Shown here: positions 34,898-45,957 of the stretch, one piece after another
Layout of the letters: the number at the start of each line of letters is the position of its first letter
Position numbering within the stretch: the first letter of the stretch is position 1
Source of the DNA: Paracyclopina nana
Taxonomy: Eukaryota; Arthropoda; Copepoda; Cyclopoida; Cyclopettidae
Length of the DNA stretch: 64,000 bases
Direction: 5' to 3'
Assembly: GCA_019096065.1 (NCBI GenBank)
Contig: JAGUCH010000001.1
Coordinates: forward strand, 9,486,001-9,550,000
Translations under genes and position numbers: made by a program
The notes under the pieces: model-generated
Told to the model about the DNA's origin: nothing
The model's input: the letters and a program-made list of their open reading frames with translations, nothing else
Database searches by the model: none

Positions 34898-36030
34898 CAA
34901 TATTGGACGTTGTATTGTGGCACCTTACACCTACTGGGGCCAATAAACAAAAAGAACTGCGTAGAGCCTTCCCCATAGGTAACATAATTGCGCACAGACT
35001 CAGCAATCCTATTGTTACTAATTTTTCCCTTTTTCTAGGAGGACAAGCGTGGCTGTTTTGCTCAATAGCCTAATTTTTGCCTGGCTTTTGCTGCAGAATC
35101 TGATTCCAGCTGATTATTAGAGTCGCGTGAAAATCTCCGCATGGTCAACTTTTCTTTTTGTGCAAGCAAAATGCAATAAATTATTTCCAGGTCACTCCTC
35201 TGTTGCTCGCAGGGATATTTCCATCCTTTCACAGATGCAAATTACACAGTTTTAACAAAAAGCTCACTAGTCTTCTCGTAATGCTGTCAGTTTTAAATTC
35301 ACCGTGGACATTTTGACAAACAGCTCTCCAAGAAAGAAAGCAAACAAGAAAGCGCTATTCAAGCGTAAGATCGCGTTCCCATTTTGTTTCGTAAGCTAGT
35401 CTAAAGTAATCTTTTTTTCTAATATGGTTTGTAAGGTGAAATCCTTTCGTTGGACAGCTTTGCTTCCAGTGTGTTGTGCTTGCCATCATTCTTTTGTTTT
35501 TGCAAGGGAAAGTCATCCCTTGCCAACAACTGAAGATGAAGAAAAAATGCTAGCTGTTTCATACCTTTTTCTAGTTTAAAAAGACTGTTGAATGATGAAT
35601 CGCTAAGCGAGTTTTTCAGCGTTATTTAGTTCTAGACAATTTATCAGGATTTTGGATGAAACTCTAATGACGACGCGAGCTCGGTTGTCTAGCCGTAAAA
35701 TGTTCTTCAACTAAACAACTCTTCAGCTTCAATTTGTATTGCAAAAAGGAGTTCTTCTCCCACACTGTTCTTTTTTCTGAAGTGAATGTTCAATAGCCCG
35801 TGGAACAAGTTCCTTCAGTCGCCTGCACTAGTATACTAACCAGACCGTTTCAATGCATGGAGCTAATAAGGAAAGCTAGCTTTCATTAAGCAAAATAGTA
35901 TATTAACTTTAAGCTTGGCTTGGCACTCTGCTACATGATCATTATTAAGTGGCCACTCTGTTTGGTAAATCCACTTCTTGCACTCGACCATTTATGTTGA
36001 GATTGATGGAATTCCGACTGTTTGAAGCTT
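34898..36030. other. Intergenic region, no gene seen
   Basis: Lies between the first KChIP-like exon and the last visible flippase exon, both on the minus strand. It may contain the KChIP promoter and the true 3' end of the flippase gene; neither can be pinned down. Confidence 0.5.
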
Positions 36031-36129
36031 TCATCGACTTGCCACTTCCCTCGGGAATAGTTGGTGGGAGCTTTCGGGAAGAAAAGTCAGATAGGCTAAG
36101 CTTGTACCCTCATTTACATGCACAGTTAC

Positions 36130-39100
36130 CTGGAAACTTGCGGCGTTATGGTGGTGATTGTGGTGGTGTGGCCTCATCATTTTACCAGAAGTGATGAGAC
36201 GGCCAAAGCCTTCTTGATGGGCGAAGGCATAACCAGAACGAACGCTTCGCCTGCAAAACGAAAAAAGTTCAATTTTACAATAACGCTTAAGTGCACACAT
36301 TGCAAGCCTATCTTTAGCTTCATATGAGAGAAAAGTAAACACTATCATCGGTCATAGTACTTTTTGCAAGACTCTCGAAAAAACGGAGACCGAATTCAAC
36401 TAGGTCCTTTTACAGTTGCAACATGGATTTATTTCCATCCGTCCCAAAAGGAAGAGTCGGCATAAAAGGGGGCTTTTTACCAGCCATTTATCATGGCTGA
36501 ACATTTGCTGCATTTCTCCTTCTCGATATTCCTAGCTACTTTTCCTCAATAAAGTTGAGAAACATAAATTAAGCCAACTTATCCTGCGCCACAAGGTGCT
36601 CATGAAGAACTCAGCCAAAAGCTAGTATGCCAGAAAAAGCTATCATTTGCCTTCAGCAACGAAGTCTTTTTTCCATTCTCTCAACAAAATTGTAGAAAAA
36701 ACACGAGGATATCCCCAATTTTTTGATGTGAAAGCTTGCAAGATTTCCCAAGGGTGTTACAACTAGTATGTTAACATAATTTAGCAATTTTGGACTAATG
36801 AATATATCTTGTTCACATGCAACGACAGGCTACATTCTTGAGCATTGCATTTTTAGAGCACTAAAAGAAAGTGGTTTTATCGGGCTTGTTTGAAGCCATG
36901 AAAAATGATATTCTTTGCAGCAGCCAAACTCATTTCTCTTGAGCAAGAAAAAAACTGCCAAGAATTAATTTACTTCACTCAAAAATGAAAGGAGCTTTGA
37001 CATGCCATAAACCGACTTAACTGCTTGCGCTGTTTAATTTCAATGAAAGCAACATAATTAACATAATGGAAAGGCTTTTCTCTATGGGGAAAAATATACT
37101 GCAATATCATGATAGCACAATAAGAGTGCATGACTCAAGGTAGAAGTTAACAAAGAAAATTACGCTAGGCTCTGAAGCAGCAGCATAACAATTACTTATC
37201 CTAAGCAAAGGGATAAAAGAAAAAGCAGCCAAATAAAGGCTGATAATGCTGATCCATTGCTGTTCAACCATTTTTCCTTTCCTTCCCCTATGACACCTTT
37301 ATGCAGCTCGTTAATGTTTTGAATGTTAATTGCAAAGGCGGCCAATCAGTTGAGCTCTCTAAAGTATTTGCCGAATTTTCTTTAAAAAAAAGGGCATTTT
37401 ATTTACCGTGATCTTCTGCCGCTGAAAGGTCTGAACTCTTCTTTTGGTTTAATTTTGGCATGTCTCTGCAGCAATCTGACCTTGTCAGACAAAGTTGGGT
37501 GCACATCTGACCTATAGAATCTCCATGCCACAACAGGAAGCACAAGGACCACAGTGGACAGCAAGCTTGTGAACCAAAATGTGGGATCAGACATAGCCTG
37601 CCAAATAAATTTGAGATCAAAGGCCCCCTTCCACAAGCGTAAATTACCGTTAAAAGAGATCCAATGTAGCTTCCAAACAGAACATAGTTGTAGAAGAATT
37701 GCAAAGCAAAGTAGAAAATTAAACTGCCCCAAATGGCCACATGGTTGAGCCAAGTCCAATAGGAGGTATCCAGTGCAATCTAAGGAGGAAAAAAGTCATT
37801 TACGGCTTAGTCTCTTCTGGAGATTTCATAGTGACCAAGCCACGGGCATTATCGATTCTTGTGTTCTGAGTAGGCTGCGATAGGACCACATAAGAATCGA
37901 TAGTGACCGTGACAATGCCACTATAAAATCTCCAGATGAGACTAAGCCTAAATAGTAGCGATAAGAAAAGAGACATGGCAGTTATTGCTCAGAGAGGAAT
38001 GTGGCCTTACCTGAGCTGTCACCACAATGACCAAAGTTGTGGCAACTACAGAGCCAAATAGCATGTGATCAGAAAGCACTTGACCATTAAGGCTGGTTTT
38101 GTTGTGATAAGCTCCTAGAGTGGAAGAAAAGTGGTCTTTTTAGCTGAATAAAATCATGGTGGTTCGAAGATAAAATGAATGCTATAGCAAATAAGTGGTG
38201 TATGGTGAACAAAACATTGATAAAAGGGTAATTGCTAGGCTATACCATAGCCCGGTTCCAACAATGAAGATGTAACTTGACTTCAAGTCACTGTTAGCTC
38301 AGCTTGACCGGACTTAGCTGGGTTACCGTACTTTACTATGCCATGCTGATATTCCTTGTTGGACCTGGGCTCGTGGCTGTTGCACGAAAGAATTGGCCAA
38401 AATTGCATTTGTGCACATTTTACGATGACACCAAATAGTAGTCCATGGCTGCCAATATTTTTTCCAACTTTTTTCGAGTAAATCAAAATGGCTCACCATG
38501 GCTAATGAAAAAAAGGAAACAACTGCTGACAAATCCTTGCAGGGCACTCTTGAAGAACTCTCGTTTGTTGAAAAGTGCGGATGAAAGTCCTGGTGCGTAC
38601 AACTTGGAATATTTGAGTGAGTGGGCGGCGTCCACGTCTTGGTCAAAGATGCCCAACGCCAGGACTGGTTGAGACGTGTAGAACACGTTGTAGACAGCGA
38701 TGAACATCGGCTCAAATAGTGTCTAAGGAAAGTAGTAGTGCATGAAAAACAACATGATGTCAATCAAACAAAAGAATGGATGATGGCCTTCCATATTCTG
38801 CGGTATAGCTGCGGCATGTTGTGCTCAATGCTAGTGGCTATAAAAAGGCCACCATTATTTTTTCATACTACATTTCTCCAACCAAGAGCACTGAGTTGGC
38901 ATGGGGGAGGGCATTGTTCAAACTACCTTCTGCCATTTATCACTCAGAAAAAGTTGGTTGTTGCTCATTCCCACGTTAAATAAAAGAAAAATCCCTGTGA
39001 AAAGACATCAAAGGGAATACAGCTATTGTGCTTGAGATATAAAGGGTCACACACACACACATAGACGGAAAGATGAGCCAAAAAGCATAAATGCTGATGG

Positions 39101-42100
39101 AGTAGAACATGTGGTCAATGTTTGTGCAACAATAAAGTGCTTGAACATCAACAATGAGACTACAGTGGGTTTGTGTGCTCGTGCGTAAGTGTCCAAGTCT
39201 GGCCGACGACGGAAATTATGCCAAGCTTGTCCTACTTTCACATGCACACAAAACCACCGTGAATCATAGCAAGTACCAGCTGGAATGCCAGCCAAAATGA
39301 GGCTGCTCAAGCAGCCTCGAATCGCATCGTAGGCGAAAATCCTCCTATTGAAAAATTCGTTCAGCACCCCTGGCCAGTACAGTTTGCCGTATCTGATGGA
39401 GGCCACATCATCGACATCCTTGTCAAAGATGCCCAAAGCAATGATGGGTAATGATGTGTAAAACATATTGTAGGTCGAGATAAAAAAGGGGTCATAGACG
39501 GTCTGCAAATAAGATTTTCTTTGTACTTCCATTTTCTTCCTCACATATATTCAAGTGAGCTGTAAGCCCATCAAAGGAAATTCGGGATGGGAAGAAAACT
39601 GGACGAGCCCTCTGAAGTGGTGGGAAGAAAACTACTGTGTATCATAACCAAAGGCCAAACTTTTGCCGAAATGCAGGAGACATTGCGTGACATTCTTATG
39701 ATCACGAAGAAAGCAGAGAGTAGACAGGTTTATGCTCTGTTCATCTAATAACTCCTTAAGGAATCGGAACGCGAAGTTCCTTTGCGTAAAGGAATTTCGC
39801 GTTCCGATTCCTTAAGGAGTTTGTAGATGAACAGAGCATTAGTCAGGCCTTCTCTCATGCCTTTTTTATGAGTCTCAAGCAAAAATCCCACACCTTGAAC
39901 ATTATTTTTTGTTTTGAACCCTTATTATAATGGTCGGCATAGCTGCCAAAACTTTCCTTATGAGGAAACTTTTTGCCTCGCTAAAAAAAGAAATAATAAT
40001 CAGTTGTCTTACCTGCGCACTGAAACCACAGAAGAAAGCGTACCAAAAATGACAAAGTGTAAATGCAAAGTTTTTATAGAAGAAGTATCGCAAAAATTTG
40101 CACATCCTGCAAAAAGAAATGAGAAGGCCTATTAGTACACTCCAAGAAAAATGCTTAATAATTTCAAGCTACGCATGTCATGGTGCCAAACGAAGATGCT
40201 TTTAGGCACACTTGTGTGACTTTTCTGATTAGTGTCTTAGTTAGGAGCCATGATATGTCAAAAAATAAATGTATAAATAGGGAAAATTCCCCTCTCCATT
40301 TCATTCATATCTTAATCTAGTAAGATAAACTAACAATATGAATATTCCAACAACAGCTTTCACTTTTATTTTGATCGTTGCCTATTGCAATGCAAATATA
40401 ATTAAGCCCTTCTATCAACCCACTAGGTAGTAGCCGTTTTCAAATTCCTGCGAAGCAGCATGGAATCAAATTTGTCGGTTTGTGTTTTTTCAGTGCCCTC
40501 AACTATACCATAGAGATCAATGGTGCCCAAGAAATGTACGTTACGCTAAGTTTTTACACATTAGATGATGGTGAAACACCGGTGCCTGCCGAAGTTGACG
40601 GTTGGATTGCCTACTTCCTAAATGACCCAATAGTGGATGGGCTCGGTAACGAACCCTCTCTTTACGAACAAGGACTAGAGGTCTGCAAGGAGACAAGCTG
40701 CCTGGTTCACACAGACATCTTGGCTGTCACCGACTTCTTCTTTACTTTCAGCGTAAGCATCCCCCATTCTCTCAAATTTGGCCCCTAATGTCTACAGCTT
40801 TCATTTCAGTTTGTGCCAGTTGCATTAGATGACAAGCCATTGGCTGATCTTGCCATTTTATCCATCATAACTGCCTAAACGCCTCCAAAAGGGATTTTCC
40901 TACTGCCATTATTACAGTTGTGTGATCTTTGATGATTTTTGACTAGTCAAATAAAAGTAATAGCACTTACCTGTAGTAAGACCATCGTCCATGAACAAGA
41001 AGCAAGCGCTCCAAGTATTGAAACTGGGCAATGCTATAGTCCGATGCGAGCACCGCTTGCATGCCCTCTTGCCCAGAAATGCCCACACCAATATGTGCAG
41101 CTGAAAGCAACGCAGTACAGGAAAATACCATTATCTTATCACAAGCCGAATTACTTTTTATCATAGAGACGTCGTTGGCGCCATCACCAATTGCCAAAGT
41201 CACAGCCTTTTTGTATTTCTTCACCAGTTCAATAACCAGTGCTTTTTGGATCGGAGTCACGCGACAGCATATCACAGCTGCAAGAATAAGGGCAAAGAAA
41301 AGTTTAGCATTTCATCTTGATTGGACCCAAGGTTAGCCGTACAGTTGCAGTGTTCGGCCACGCCAAGAAAGAGCAGCTCCAATCCAGGTGTGAGAGCATG
41401 CACCAGGGAGTGGCCGTTGATGACCAAACTGAAGGTGGGATGCTCCGACCCCTCCCCCATGGAAGTGGTTTCGCTCAAGGTTAACATTGACACTGAATCC
41501 TGTACCCTTGGTTTGGCAGCCAGTCTTCGACCACTGGCATTATCACCTAAAATGCAAAGATAAGATGCATACTTCTGCGCTTGGCAATCAACGGCTGAAT
41601 AGGCAAGGCGTACCATACATAAAGTAGCTATTTATGGTCGTTCTGTGCTCCACTAGCTGGGTCTGGACGTCGTCATACGTGACACCGTCCACAATAAAGG
41701 GCTCTTCCACCAAATCATCGCTCAAAAGCTGGCACGAATAGCCAATGTTGACCGCGGTCTCCTGCTTGTCCCCAGTGAGAACCCAAATTTTAATTCCAGC
41801 CCCGCGCAAATTGGCTATCGTTCTGGGCACGCCATCTTGTAGCTTGTCTTCAATTGCAGTGGCCCCCAAAAGCTGGAGGTTTTTTTCAATGTCATTATAC
41901 ACCGCGTCCAGTTTTTCCTCTCGATTCTCCAGAGAAATGGCGGCATCGTGGTGTGCACTTTTCCAGTCATTGAATTCCTGCTCAGTGAGATCTTTGGTTG
42001 CCAAAACGAGCGTTCTCAGTCCGTCGAGTGCGAATTTCTGCAAAAAGTAAGAAATGCAATTCAATTACTCCTCGGTGCACACAAGATCTGCATTGAATCA

Positions 42101-45100
42101 AGCTAAAAACTACTTGGAAAGTTTGCCCGAAAAGCAGCTCTTACATCAAGATGATTCTGAGTTTTGCCTTTCAACTCTTCTTGGCCGGGTTCGAGCCTCT
42201 CGAAAATCACCGTATCGGCGCCTGTAATTAATTCGAATTAGCTCCAAGTTAATTAGTCAATTAAGGAACTACCTTTGCAGTAGAGCCTGATTTTGCCGTC
42301 TTTTCGCAAAATCACTGACATCCTCTTGCGCACATTGTTAAAATCCAAAATGCACAAAAGCTCGTAAACTTCCTCCACTCCATTAAAAGTGATGGTGATG
42401 CTTCGCGGCGTCCGCTTGGTGAAAACGAAGCCGAAATTGCGGGCTGATGATACCAGTGCATTTTCATCAGGACTTTGAGCTTGGTACTCCAGCTTTCCTA
42501 CAAAAGAACAGCCGAGCGCTCTTATTGGTGCAACCGTAATGTAATTACTATGCATGAGCACAAAAGATATGCTGACGTACAAACAGACGAGTCATTTACA
42601 TTTTTAATTCAAAGCCAATGAAAAAAGCTCGCCACGCTTTCGAAAATGCATTAGCCGAGGATTATGTTATTTACCTCCTTCTTTGTATTCAGGCATGACT
42701 GTGTGACATAAAGCTAGGAGCCTGAAAAACTCTTGCACGTGGGGATTGCCTTGCTTGACATCATCCAGCAGACTTTTGTCGTAGAAATCGAAGGTTGGCT
42801 CGTACATCGGATTATCCGAAAAGTCCACTCGATTTTGGACCTGAAACATCAACAACAAAGGCCATAAAATAGGTGACTCGCGCCAATCTCACAGAGATGA
42901 TGGTCATGCAGGGATTTAGGTCCTTGTAGGCATACTGCACACCAAAAAATGTAGTCCAAAACCAAATCAACTTAGACACAGAAAAGCCATGACCACAAAT
43001 GAAACATAACCAGTCAGCTCATATCTTTTAGTTTCAGCTGATAATCGCCAGTATACAGTTGCGCGTGCGAGTGGAATGGCGCGCGATGAGTGGTTGTCAA
43101 CAAACCGCACGCCAATTCAAGCGCACGCGCCAAACTCAAAAACTATGAAAAATGAACTCAGTTACAGAAAAAAGATAAGAGTAAAAATAAAGGGTAGTCG
43201 TTTCTTTAATTACATCGTGCATGGTCTTTTCTGGTGGCTGATTTTCGAATTGGACCCTTCTGTTAGTATTGTTCTCTTCGTTCTCCTCTGCTGCTACATA
43301 TTTCATGGCCTCTGAGCTGTTTTCCACATCATTAGTTGATGAGCTCATGGCCTCATTATCGACCCCCCTAAGTTCTGGTTCCCTTGAGGCCACCACAGTG
43401 TCTCTGATTATGAACCGACTAAATATGTCTGTGAACATCCGGTACACTGGCTCACCTCGTTCAAGCTCATTCACATCCTAGACAAATCATTCCTTCTTTG
43501 GTCCGAGTTTGATACAAAACACTTATAAATATATACACATCTCTATGTACAGATTAATGAGGGGGTGTGCCAAACGAGGTTACAATCAATCTTACCACTA
43601 AGGCAACCAATTCGCTAAACGACATCTGAGTTTTTGTGAAAGAAAAAGGCAGTTTTCATACCGATCGTCAAAATAGAGTTAGTTGGAAACGTCAGCAAAG
43701 CAGAAAGAAAAATGAAAGGGCCAATATCGAGCGCAACTTACATCCTCTATTCCGCCAGCTTGGCCTCGATTCTCGTCCACGACATCTCCATAAGTTTTGC
43801 CTTGTATGGTGCATTTGTTGAACGTCATGATATTCTGCGGAGGAGAGCGGTAAAAGATTGATTCCAATGATTCAATTTGTCCAGTTACCTGAGTCAGGGT
43901 CCCAGTTTTGTCAGAGAAGATGTACTCGATTTGGCCCAGCTCTTCGTTCAGAGTAGTCGTTCTAGCTTTTGCTGGAGTGTCAGAGGTCGAATGGTACATT
44001 TTGATGTCCCAGGTAATGAGGAAGCTCAGGGCTAGTCGAATCACTTCGACGCTGACGTACAATGAGATGGGCACCACAGTATTGAGGACAATGGCATAGG
44101 AGAAAAATACAAGGAGTGCTATCACAGTGGCTCCTCCCACGGGATCGGAGGGTACCAAGGAATCCCAATCAAGATAGATCTGAAAGAGGAATGTATCATA
44201 AGCACTCTTGCACTATAAAAGGCAATATGAAGGAGAATAACCGCTCACCCTAAATTGCTTTCCTGTCAGGGTTTCCCAGACTCCACAGGCAATGGTGCAG
44301 AAAAGGCACATGCAAAGTAGGAAAAAGACAATCTGCAAAGGAGGAAATGATTAAGGAAGTTTGCTGCTACATCAAAGAACTTTAATGCGCAGCCAGAGAA
44401 GAGCTCCTTTCTCGCTCCATCTAGATTGGCGTACCCCTAAAATGATGAAATTCAGCAGCCTGTCAATCGACGTCCGCTTGAACTTGGCTTTTCCGGAATT
44501 CTGCATCAATTTGGTGTCTTTCCCCGCAAAGATGACAACCCCGTAGCACCAAGGGGTATTCCGGAGCACGGCACCTCGAAGCAGAATTTGGTCATTATCA
44601 ATGGCAAACTTTTTCCCTTCCCACTCCATGGTGCCTTCGAAACGTGATAGGTTGCTGTTGGGCGGCTCGCAAATGATGTGGCCATTGAAATGACTGAGCG
44701 AAACCTCATCTTCCCCCATTTGGTTGGTGGCTTCATCACACTGGCGAGATTTGAGGTTGGTTTCCCTGCAAGGTAACAAAAAAGTTGACACTGCTTTCCT
44801 AGCCTTAAGAATCTTGCTTCCAAGCTTTTACCCATCAAGTTCTGCGGTCTCGATGTAGCAGAGGCCATTCGGGTTGCTGGAGGTCAGAAGCAATACGTCT
44901 GCAGCAATAAACTGGTCGTTCTCCATGCGGATGACGTCACCCACTTGAACCCTGTGCCATTTTTCCTCCACCAACTGACCTTTGCGGAGGACTCGGGATT
45001 TGCGGTTATTCACTTGTCTGTCGGTTTGATGTCTTTGCTGCAAATGCGAAGAAGGAACGCTTGAATAATTCAGATACATGGTGATGAAAAACTTTTCCAC

Positions 45101-45957
45101 TTTCAGGAAGAGAGAGAGAGTGATTCATGGAGTAGTAAATGAGGTACAACGTATACTTGATAAAAAAAAACTACGAGCAAAACATGGAGAGAGGCCTATT
45201 TCTCAAATGGAACTTACTATGTCATCATAAGCATCTTTGATTGCAATGAGCAAAAGTACTCCAATTAAAGGTACAGCAGTTGTCACCGGTGTGAGAGAAG
45301 AAATCACATCAATCAGCTGCAAAAAGATGCAATTTGGTCAATTTAGTAATAAGAATAAAAAGGTCGAAACGCCTTACTTGTAATATAAGCAGGCATAAAA
45401 AGTAGAAATTAGCGAGCCTTTGAAATTGCTCGAATAAATTAAGAGGTAGGAACGACCACCAGGTGTATTTGGATGTCTTGATGTTGTTGTTCTGCAAAGA
45501 CACGATTTTGTTACTGGAAATATTTTATTGAGAAGACTTTGGGGGCAAAGCTTACTGCATAATTGAATTTGTTGTTGTACACACTGTCATTGGCAATGAT
45601 ATCTCTTTGGGTCTCTGAAATGGAAGCAGAAGTATCAGTAAAGGCAATCCAAATTCTCGTTTGAAGCAAGACTGGTCCACCTAGTTCAGGTACAATGCAG
45701 CACCCACAAAACGTTCTTTTGAACCACGAGTGTTGCTTTTTAGGTGGAACGACCCTCGAGCTCGGCTTAGACGAATCAATGGAGGGATTAGTTTCACTGC
45801 TGGCAACTGGGCCAATTTTGTTTGGCCTTCTTCTAGGTACTTTGAGGTGTGGCCTTTTGATCGGGGGCAAATCAGGCCTAGTGGGCCACTGAATGGCACC
45901 AATTTTGTCATCACTCTCAACCCTGATCTCAGGCTTGTAAAAGCCCTCACTTCCCAT
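36130..45957 (-). CDS. ATP8B-like P4-ATPase (phospholipid flippase)
   Basis: Exons, 5' to 3': 45957-45681, 45614-45556, 45491-45378, 45316-45218, 45037-44832, 44765-44435, 44332-44249, 44179-43889, 43834-43742, 43477-43214, 42934-42893, 42840-42675, 42497-42273, 42221-42145, 42037-41614, 41546-41343, 41277-41155, 41100-40971, 40106-40013, then either 39502-39277 or 38722-38497, then 38114-38011, 37779-37648, 37597-37407, 36250-36130 (last end uncertain). All phases agree; about 1360 residues. Seen: AELDGETNLK, the phosphorylation motif [42 protein letters not shown], ten expected membrane segments, and the C-terminal [18 protein letters not shown] motif typical of ATP8B. It moves phospholipids between membrane leaflets, usually with a CDC50 partner. 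Alternative first exons are likely. Introns contain two MITEs, a hairpin and a nested gene. Confidence 0.93.
37804..37951. mobile_element. MITE in a flippase intron
   Basis: About 148 bp with inverted ends ggcttagtctcttctggaga and its near-complement (tctccagatgagactaagcc). An inner inverted repeat gattctt/aagaatc is also present. No ORF. Located between exons 37779-37648 and 38114-38011. Confidence 0.75.
38248..38371. mobile_element. MITE, second copy of the agcccggttccaac family
   Basis: The left end agcccggttccaacaa matches the inverse of the right end (ttgttggacctgggct) with two differences. Same family as 27689-27820. Located in the flippase intron between 38114 and 38497. Confidence 0.7.
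38497..38722 (-). other. Flippase exon copy B (TM6-TM7), mutually exclusive
   Basis: 226-nt exon with the same phases as copy A, encoding [17 protein letters not shown]... through LFFISH. It aligns to copy A without gaps, with about half of its 75 residues identical. The shared core ALGIFD-DVD is kept; the loop and TM7 differ most. Using both or neither would break the frame. Confidence 0.88.
39277..39502 (-). other. Flippase exon copy A (TM6-TM7), mutually exclusive
   Basis: 226-nt exon entering in phase 0 and leaving in phase 1. It encodes [17 protein letters not shown]... through ILAGIPA, expected membrane segments 6 and 7 and the loop between. The partner at 38497-38722 has equal length and phases. 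Confidence 0.88.
39732..39839. repeat. 108-bp near-perfect hairpin in a flippase intron
   Basis: Outer arms atgctctgttcatct and complement (39732-39746, 39825-39839) flank inner arms aactccttaaggaatcggaa (from 39750) and complement, differing at two bases with almost no loop. The outer end gtagatgaacag also occurs near 30992 and 31673, linking it to repeats there. Confidence 0.85.
40272..40279 (+). promoter_or_regulatory. TATA box of the nested secreted-protein gene
   Basis: TATAAATA lies 66 bases before the ATG at 40338. A start near catttcattc (about 40297-40306) would be at usual spacing. Confidence 0.65.
40338..40878 (+). CDS. Small secreted protein nested in a flippase intron
   Basis: Three exons (40338-40426, 40494-40752, 40810-40878) with phases 2 and 0, giving 138 residues. 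[20 protein letters not shown] is a clear signal peptide. The mature part is acidic and beta-like ([20 protein letters not shown]) and has one close cysteine pair, CKETSC, likely a disulfide. It is complete: a TATA box upstream, ATG, two GT-AG introns, TAA, and AATAAA at 40950-40955. It runs opposite to the flippase, entirely inside the intron between exons 41100-40971 and 40106-40013; its polyadenylation signal is about 16 bases from the flippase exon. I do not recognise the family. Confidence 0.75.

What the first reader, a model, noticed from the sequence alone, without database searches (positions are those of the whole stretch)
38497..39502. Mutually exclusive duplicated exons in an ATP8B-like flippase
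Two tandem exons are both exactly 226 nt, enter in phase 0 and leave in phase 1, align without gaps, and share about half of their 75 residues. They encode membrane segments 6 and 7 and the loop between. Because 226 is not a multiple of three, including both or skipping both breaks the frame, so one-or-the-other splicing is enforced. Swapping TM6-TM7 could change lipid choice or partner binding. I do not know of this being described for ATP8B genes.
Basis: partly seen in the sequence, partly recalled or inferred. Interest (0 to 1): 0.82.

Follow-up and report, generated by a model that had tools for sequence, protein, structure and literature searches.

The report
Swappable membrane exons in crustacean flippase
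A crustacean gene for a lipid-flipping membrane pump carries two alternative versions of the exon for two of its membrane helices, arranged so that exactly one can be used, so one gene can probably make two slightly different pumps.

Summary
On the minus strand, a 26-exon ATP8B-type P4-ATPase gene contains two tandem 226-nt exons, A (39502-39277) and B (38722-38497). Both enter in phase 0, leave in phase 1 and align without gaps (37 of 75 residues identical). Either copy gives a 1,432-residue pump; both or neither stop after 1,211 or 1,155 residues. They encode TM6, the loop and TM7.

The organism is copepod-like. B is the ordinary arthropod exon. A is an old copy with saturated silent sites but restrained protein change. 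An Armadillidium (isopod) gene model carries 41 residues of an A-like exon directly before its B exon, so the pair probably predates the copepod-isopod split; trees lean that way but are not decisive.

On human ATP8B1, both copies keep N989 and T993 of TM6. They differ at 995 (L/Q) and 1032 (I/E), a phosphoinositide contact on TM7. I infer frame-enforced choice between two pumps with different regulation. No competing RNA structure above shuffles. Use of A in mRNA is untested. Searches of an open-licence library listed no such exons in a P4-ATPase.

The parts
35945..45957 (-). ATP8B-type P4-ATPase gene, 26 exons counting both A and B; start codon and three small in-frame exons (43625-43596, 43477-43214, 42934-42893) are my choice
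   Evidence: Exon model and translation; TIGR01652 1,201.7 bits against cut-off 431.25; best solved match ATP8B1
40013..40106 (-). Exon before the pair (TM5, ends ...FSAQ), donor CAG|GTAAGA
39277..39502 (-). Exon A: alternative TM6-loop-TM7, 226 nt, phase 0 to 1
38497..38722 (-). Exon B: ordinary arthropod version of TM6-loop-TM7, 226 nt, phase 0 to 1
38723..39276 (-). Intron between A and B, 554 nt, GT-AG; holds UGCAUG at 39246 (+31 after A), a lead only
38011..38114 (-). Exon after the pair (enters in phase 1; G|AYHNK, TM8); skipping both A and B puts a stop codon here, 66 bases in

Best explanation
A and B are alternative, functionally constrained versions of one exon in the ATP8B-type flippase gene of this crustacean, made by an old tandem exon duplication. 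One is used per productive mRNA: because 226 = 3n+1, joint inclusion or skipping shifts the frame and puts a stop several introns before the end, which should send the mRNA to nonsense-mediated decay. Shown: anatomy, phases, splice signals, frame consequences, homology, constraint on the A protein sequence. Inferred: that both are spliced, that decay removes the wrong products, and that splicing regulators rather than competing RNA structure choose the copy. Inferred function: both forms keep the TM6 residues named for the transport site, so both should flip lipid. They differ beside that site (position 18: L in A, Q in B) and at the inner end of TM7, where human ATP8B1 contacts an activating phosphoinositide through R1032 (I in A, E in B; positions 57-59 AYD against FKS). 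The choice would then mainly retune activation by phosphoinositides and autoinhibition, with a possible shift in head-group handling.
For: Equal length, phases and GT-AG borders; 37 of 75 identical without gaps, shuffle maximum 15. A stays open and matches PF16212 although silent sites are saturated: pS 0.80 against pN 0.33; neutral simulation from B at distances 1 to 2 leaves the frame open in 2.8-4.0% of 4,000 runs each and never gives 36 identities. P0029 of Armadillidium holds an A-like stretch at the same entry point before B; STYN is in window A and P0029 and in no other of 235 database proteins. A lacks the copepod-B letter at all 6 sites flagged as derived and has the commonest or tied-commonest outgroup letter at 4. 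Splice-site scores of A lie within the gene's range. Residue mapping.
Against: No transcript or protein with a whole A exon was found among the 235 fetched (the database is clustered at 90% identity, so isoforms can be hidden). A departs from six near-invariant positions: 20, 21, 28, 39, 59, 71. The A pair in the tree joins long branches, has support 81/78, and does not survive as one place when either is left out; AU p for A inside copepods 0.068, for Armadillidium A inside malacostracan Bs 0.174. On its first 41 columns window A is closer to several single-type sequences (up to 73%) than to Armadillidium A (61%). Position 55 is E in 30 of 40 other rows, not R as in human ATP8B1, so the phosphoinositide site may not work alike in arthropods.
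Confidence: 0.72

Rival explanations
1. A is a relic: an old duplicate that has recently lost its use. It is still open and has splice signals but is rarely or never in stable mRNA; B is the only working exon.
For: The closest plankton proteins P0003-P0005 are B-type; A differs at six near-invariant positions; no expression data here.
Against: Open frame, both splice sites and restrained protein change at saturated silent distance; A-like stretch in an isopod.
Confidence: 0.15
2. The pair works mainly as an off switch: A is included together with B (or both are skipped) under some conditions, so that the shifted frame lowers pump level, and the A-only pump matters little.
For: Both double inclusion and skipping give early stops with several introns downstream; neither acceptor nor donor of the pair is strong for this gene (donors 7th and 8th lowest of 25, acceptors 8th and 4th lowest of 25).
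Against: An off switch alone would not keep the A protein sequence, splice phase and exact length.
Confidence: 0.1
3. Age rival: the A-like exon of Armadillidium and exon A of this species arose by separate duplications in the two lineages, so the pair is not an old shared feature.
For: AU tests do not reject either placement (p 0.068 and 0.174); the two A rows are long branches and part when built singly.
Against: Same order, same entry point, shared STYN seen in no other of 235 database proteins; A has none of the 6 copepod-B derived letters.
Confidence: 0.25

Closest known systems
Frame-shift-enforced mutually exclusive exons (PMC5740500 and PMC3228551; passages read)
   Same: Neighbouring homologous exons of equal length and phase; joint inclusion shifts the frame; frame shift leading to NMD is one of three regulation classes named there
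   Different: Those sets rest on splice-junction reads; here there are none. The words flippase, ATPase and ATP8 do not occur in the main text of PMC5740500
[quoted passage not shown] passages read)
   Same: A P-type ATPase gene family with tandem duplicated exon substitution
   Different: A calcium pump, not a flippase; which segment is swapped was not read
Human ATP8B1 (PMC10657443; passages read)
   Same: Best solved match over the whole protein; N989 and T993 of TM6 kept by both exons
   Different: R1032 of the phosphoinositide site is I in A and E in B; vertebrates have several ATP8B genes (recalled), and alternative TM6-TM7 exons in them were not found in my paper searches
Drosophila dATP8B, CG14741 (PMC3961175; passages read)
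   Same: Arthropod ATP8B-type flippase with seven predicted isoforms; by its title required for odorant receptor function
   Different: The passages mention no TM6-TM7 alternatives, and 'splic' does not occur in the text held; its gene structure was not examined

Membership tests
Mutually exclusive tandem exons | Similar length and conserved splice sites and phase | tested here: met
   226 nt each, GT-AG, phase 0 to 1
Mutually exclusive tandem exons | Sequence homology without in-frame stop | tested here: met
   37 of 75 identical, both open
Mutually exclusive tandem exons | Joint inclusion is non-productive | tested here: met
   Stop after 1,211 residues; for skipping after 1,155
Mutually exclusive tandem exons | Junction reads for each copy and not for both | not testable with these tools
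   No reads available
Mutually exclusive exons steered by competing RNA pairing (Dscam type) | Intron stretches that pair above chance | tested here: not met
   44, 68 and 55 of 100 shuffles reach the observed duplex energy; in 12 pairing tests the lowest was 7 of 60. One genome only, so conserved weak pairing is not excluded
Mutually exclusive exons by steric or spliceosome-type incompatibility | Very short intron between copies, or mixed U2/U12 sites | tested here: not met
   554-nt intron, while introns of about 50-66 nt occur in this gene; all borders GT-AG. Branch points were not mapped
P4-ATPase, ATP8B type | P4 family profile and nearest to ATP8B | tested here: met
   TIGR01652 1,201.7 bits; ATP8B1 1,149 bits against 873 for 6k7g and 845 for DRS2; DKTGTLT and PISL read in the translation
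P4-ATPase, ATP8B type | Flips lipid with a CDC50 partner | not testable with these tools
   No assay; CDC50 genes were not searched for

The most novel reading that the evidence does not exclude
Since an early crustacean ancestor, one ATP8B gene has made two flippases by exchanging, as a unit, the transport-site helix TM6 and the phosphoinositide-site helix TM7, so that cells switch a pump's lipid handling and phosphoinositide response by splicing.
Probability: 0.33. Interest if true: 0.7.

Novelty: new member of a known kind. Interest (0 to 1): 0.5.

Why it matters
[quoted passage not shown] Two natural versions of TM6-TM7 in one otherwise identical pump, the second apparently kept by selection, would be a ready-made experiment on that question and on lipid choice. 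If the pair proves common in crustaceans, it is also an old and overlooked splicing event in a pump family whose fly member is required for odorant receptor function (title of PMC3961175).

Tried and rejected
Competing RNA structure: three intron-intron pairings by whole-intron duplex energy and by best 16- or 24-nt pairing, none above shuffles. A 104-nt hairpin upstream of A (39733-39836) looked like a structure but is a repeat: 88 matches in the genome, in which both strands of a palindrome are counted and only 40 of 158 candidates were scored. A 16-nt inverted repeat around exon B (38464-38479 with 38942-38957) is within chance: 7 of 60 shuffles reach 14 of 16. A weak donor in A as a reason for B dominance was dropped, since the two donors score alike (5.7 and 5.8). 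Recent assembly or segmental duplication was dropped: A and B differ at 43% of bases. A narrow database search with exon A alone gave 19 candidates and no hit, so it was repeated with flanks. A scan of IMG/VR contigs found no relative. A firm age claim from the 75-column tree was held back because of long branches and the AU tests. A Drosophila Na,K-ATPase precedent is recalled only; searches did not confirm it and it is not used. Structure prediction was not run.

Full report
What is there. The region belongs to a gene on the minus strand. Read exon by exon it gives 26 exons from 45957 to 35945, with GT-AG borders, that join into an ATP8B-type phospholipid-translocating P-type ATPase. The 1,432-residue product scores 1,201.7 bits with TIGR01652 (cut-off 431.25). 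Its best solved match is human ATP8B1, listed as Phospholipid-transporting ATPase IC (1,149 bits), ahead of 6k7g (873) and DRS2 (845). The start codon and three small in-frame exons near 43.6-42.9 kb are my choice and do not affect the finding.

The pair. Exon A (39502-39277) and exon B (38722-38497) are each 226 nt, enter in phase 0 after ...FSAQ and leave in phase 1 into G|AYHNK. With either one the frame runs to the end. With both, the stop codon begins nine bases into B, after 1,211 residues; with neither, it lies in the next exon, after 1,155 residues. Five and four exon junctions follow these stops, which by the usual rule (recalled) predicts decay of the mRNA. A and B share 37 of 75 residues without a gap, against a shuffle mean of 5.0 and maximum of 15 in 20,000. 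No other tandem copy of an exon was found in the window by tblastn of the exon peptides of 12 residues or more at E 0.05. In the same genome (91.95 Mb in 10 contigs) PF16212 gave 18 matches, seven places by my count. Only here do two separate DNA stretches match the same 76 profile positions (59-134).

Which organism. Over 291 residues the nearest named relatives of isoform B are Lepeophtheirus (83%) and Tigriopus (80-81%), with unnamed sequences at 89-93% and most listed decapods at 74-76%. It is a copepod-like crustacean.

Which copy is ordinary. B is 92% identical in this exon to the nearest database sequence, P0003, and sits with three unnamed sequences (99/96) among copepods in a tree of 42 rows. 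All 120 proteins listed match both copies; 119 match B better than A, the exception being an odd partial model, P0014. Of the 115 further proteins, four match A better: a fish (P0123), an annelid (P0124) and two gastropods (P0230, P0233). None of the four is an A-type isoform beside a B; by eye they are the single-type sequence of their group. These lists are the best 120 of 7,974 and of 3,385 hits, and the database is clustered at 90% identity, so isoforms that differ only in this exon can be hidden.

Is A real and kept. Silent sites between A and B are saturated (pS 0.80) while pN is 0.33. Neutral simulation from B at distances of 1, 1.5 and 2 leaves the frame open in 4.0, 3.0 and 2.8% of 4,000 runs and never gives 36 identities; at distance 0.3, where silent sites would not be saturated, 80% of runs do. 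On a leave-one-out matrix from the gene's own sites, the donors of A and B score 5.7 and 5.8 bits (median of 25 donors 7.7) and the acceptors 6.2 and 1.2 (median of 25 acceptors 8.4), all inside the gene's range. Against this, A departs from six near-invariant positions: 20, 21, 28, 39, 59 and 71. A recent death of A cannot be excluded.

How old. P0029, an Armadillidium vulgare gene model, reads ...[63 protein letters not shown].... That is an A-like stretch of 41 residues at the same entry point, directly before a B exon. A gene predictor forced to include both members of such a pair would produce this, by cutting A short and adding a few intron-like residues before B (my reading; the contig was not read). 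STYN occurs in window A and in 1 of 235 database proteins, P0029. In the tree the two A stretches pair (81/78) outside a clade of 33 arthropod B rows (82/94). At the six sites flagged as derived in copepod-like B rows, A never has their letter and has the commonest or tied-commonest outgroup letter at four. Against: the A rows are long branches and only 41 columns overlap. Left out one at a time, window A goes beside the annelid and Armadillidium A beside the fish row. AU tests give p 0.068 for A inside copepods, 0.174 for Armadillidium A inside malacostracan Bs, and 0.227 for both As with the crustacean Bs; a clade of all arthropod rows with both As is as good as the free tree. On the first 41 columns window A is 61% identical to Armadillidium A but up to 73% to single-type sequences such as Haliotis. 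I take one old pair as likelier than two duplications, not as shown.

What is swapped. [quoted passage not shown] The same asparagine is N1226 of Dnf1 by the equal-length alignment listed; [quoted passage not shown] Both copies keep both residues. Position 18 is L995 in ATP8B1, L in A, and Q in B and in all nine copepod-like B rows. Position 55 is R1032, the most frequent PI(3,4,5)P3 contact in ATP8B1 simulations (passage): I in A, E in B. Positions 57-59 are AYD in A and FKS in B; position 59 is S in 37 of 40 other rows. Both forms thus look like working pumps that differ beside the lipid site and at the TM7 part of the phosphoinositide pocket. A caution: position 55 is E in 30 of 40 other rows, so the arthropod site already differs from the human one. 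That the swap alters regulation is inference.

How the choice is made. The intron between the copies is 554 nt and all borders are GT-AG, so a too-short intron or mixed spliceosomes do not explain exclusion; branch points were not mapped. Intron-intron pairing is not above dinucleotide shuffles (44, 68 and 55 of 100; lowest of 12 tests 7 of 60), though one genome cannot show conserved weak pairing. This leaves frame-based exclusion plus unknown regulators. One lead is UGCAUG at +31 after exon A, one of two such motifs in up to 150 nt after the 25 donors; at 39 per 64,000 bases, chance gives about 9% per 150 nt.

What is known. Frame-shift-enforced exon pairs are a described class (PMC5740500, PMC3228551; passages), and another P-type pump family, PMCA, has tandem exon events (PMC9741552; passage). 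Searches for such exons in P4-ATPases or flippases: searches found 0 papers; some searches found 71, 92 and 55 papers, of which the 20 listed titles and abstract openings show no case; one search found 2, neither about a flippase. The library holds only open-licence papers, and isoform models in genome databases could contain unnoted cases. I call it a new member of a known kind.

Noticed in passing
window 40338-40788, + strand: A small two-exon gene on the opposite strand nested in the flippase intron 40970-40107: a signal-peptide-like start ([10 protein letters not shown]...) and a 127-residue product with no Pfam match at E 0.1 and, for an 86-residue piece, no second copy in the genome.
   Followed up: partly
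window 43625-43596, 43477-43214, 42934-42893, - strand: Three phase-0 exons of 30, 264 and 42 nt in the N-domain region that look like in-frame cassettes; by eye the 264-nt one resembles an insert of Tigriopus isoform X1 (P0012).
   Followed up: no
window 39733-39836: A 104-nt palindromic repeat with 88 matches in the genome, both strands counted, 40 of 158 candidates scored.
   Followed up: yes
window about 37790-37915: A second imperfect hairpin in the intron before exon 37779-37648, seen by eye in the sequence.
   Followed up: no
window about 34.15-33.5 kb, - strand: Exons of an EF-hand protein downstream of the flippase, Pfam EF-hand matches on a peptide joined by eye; it reads like a neuronal calcium sensor or KChIP (recalled).
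   Followed up: partly
database proteins P0123 (Pundamilia) and P0014 (Coryphaenoides): Fish P4-ATPase models with a repeated or permuted TM5 region, probably tandem-gene or model artefacts, which ranked high in the searches.
   Followed up: no
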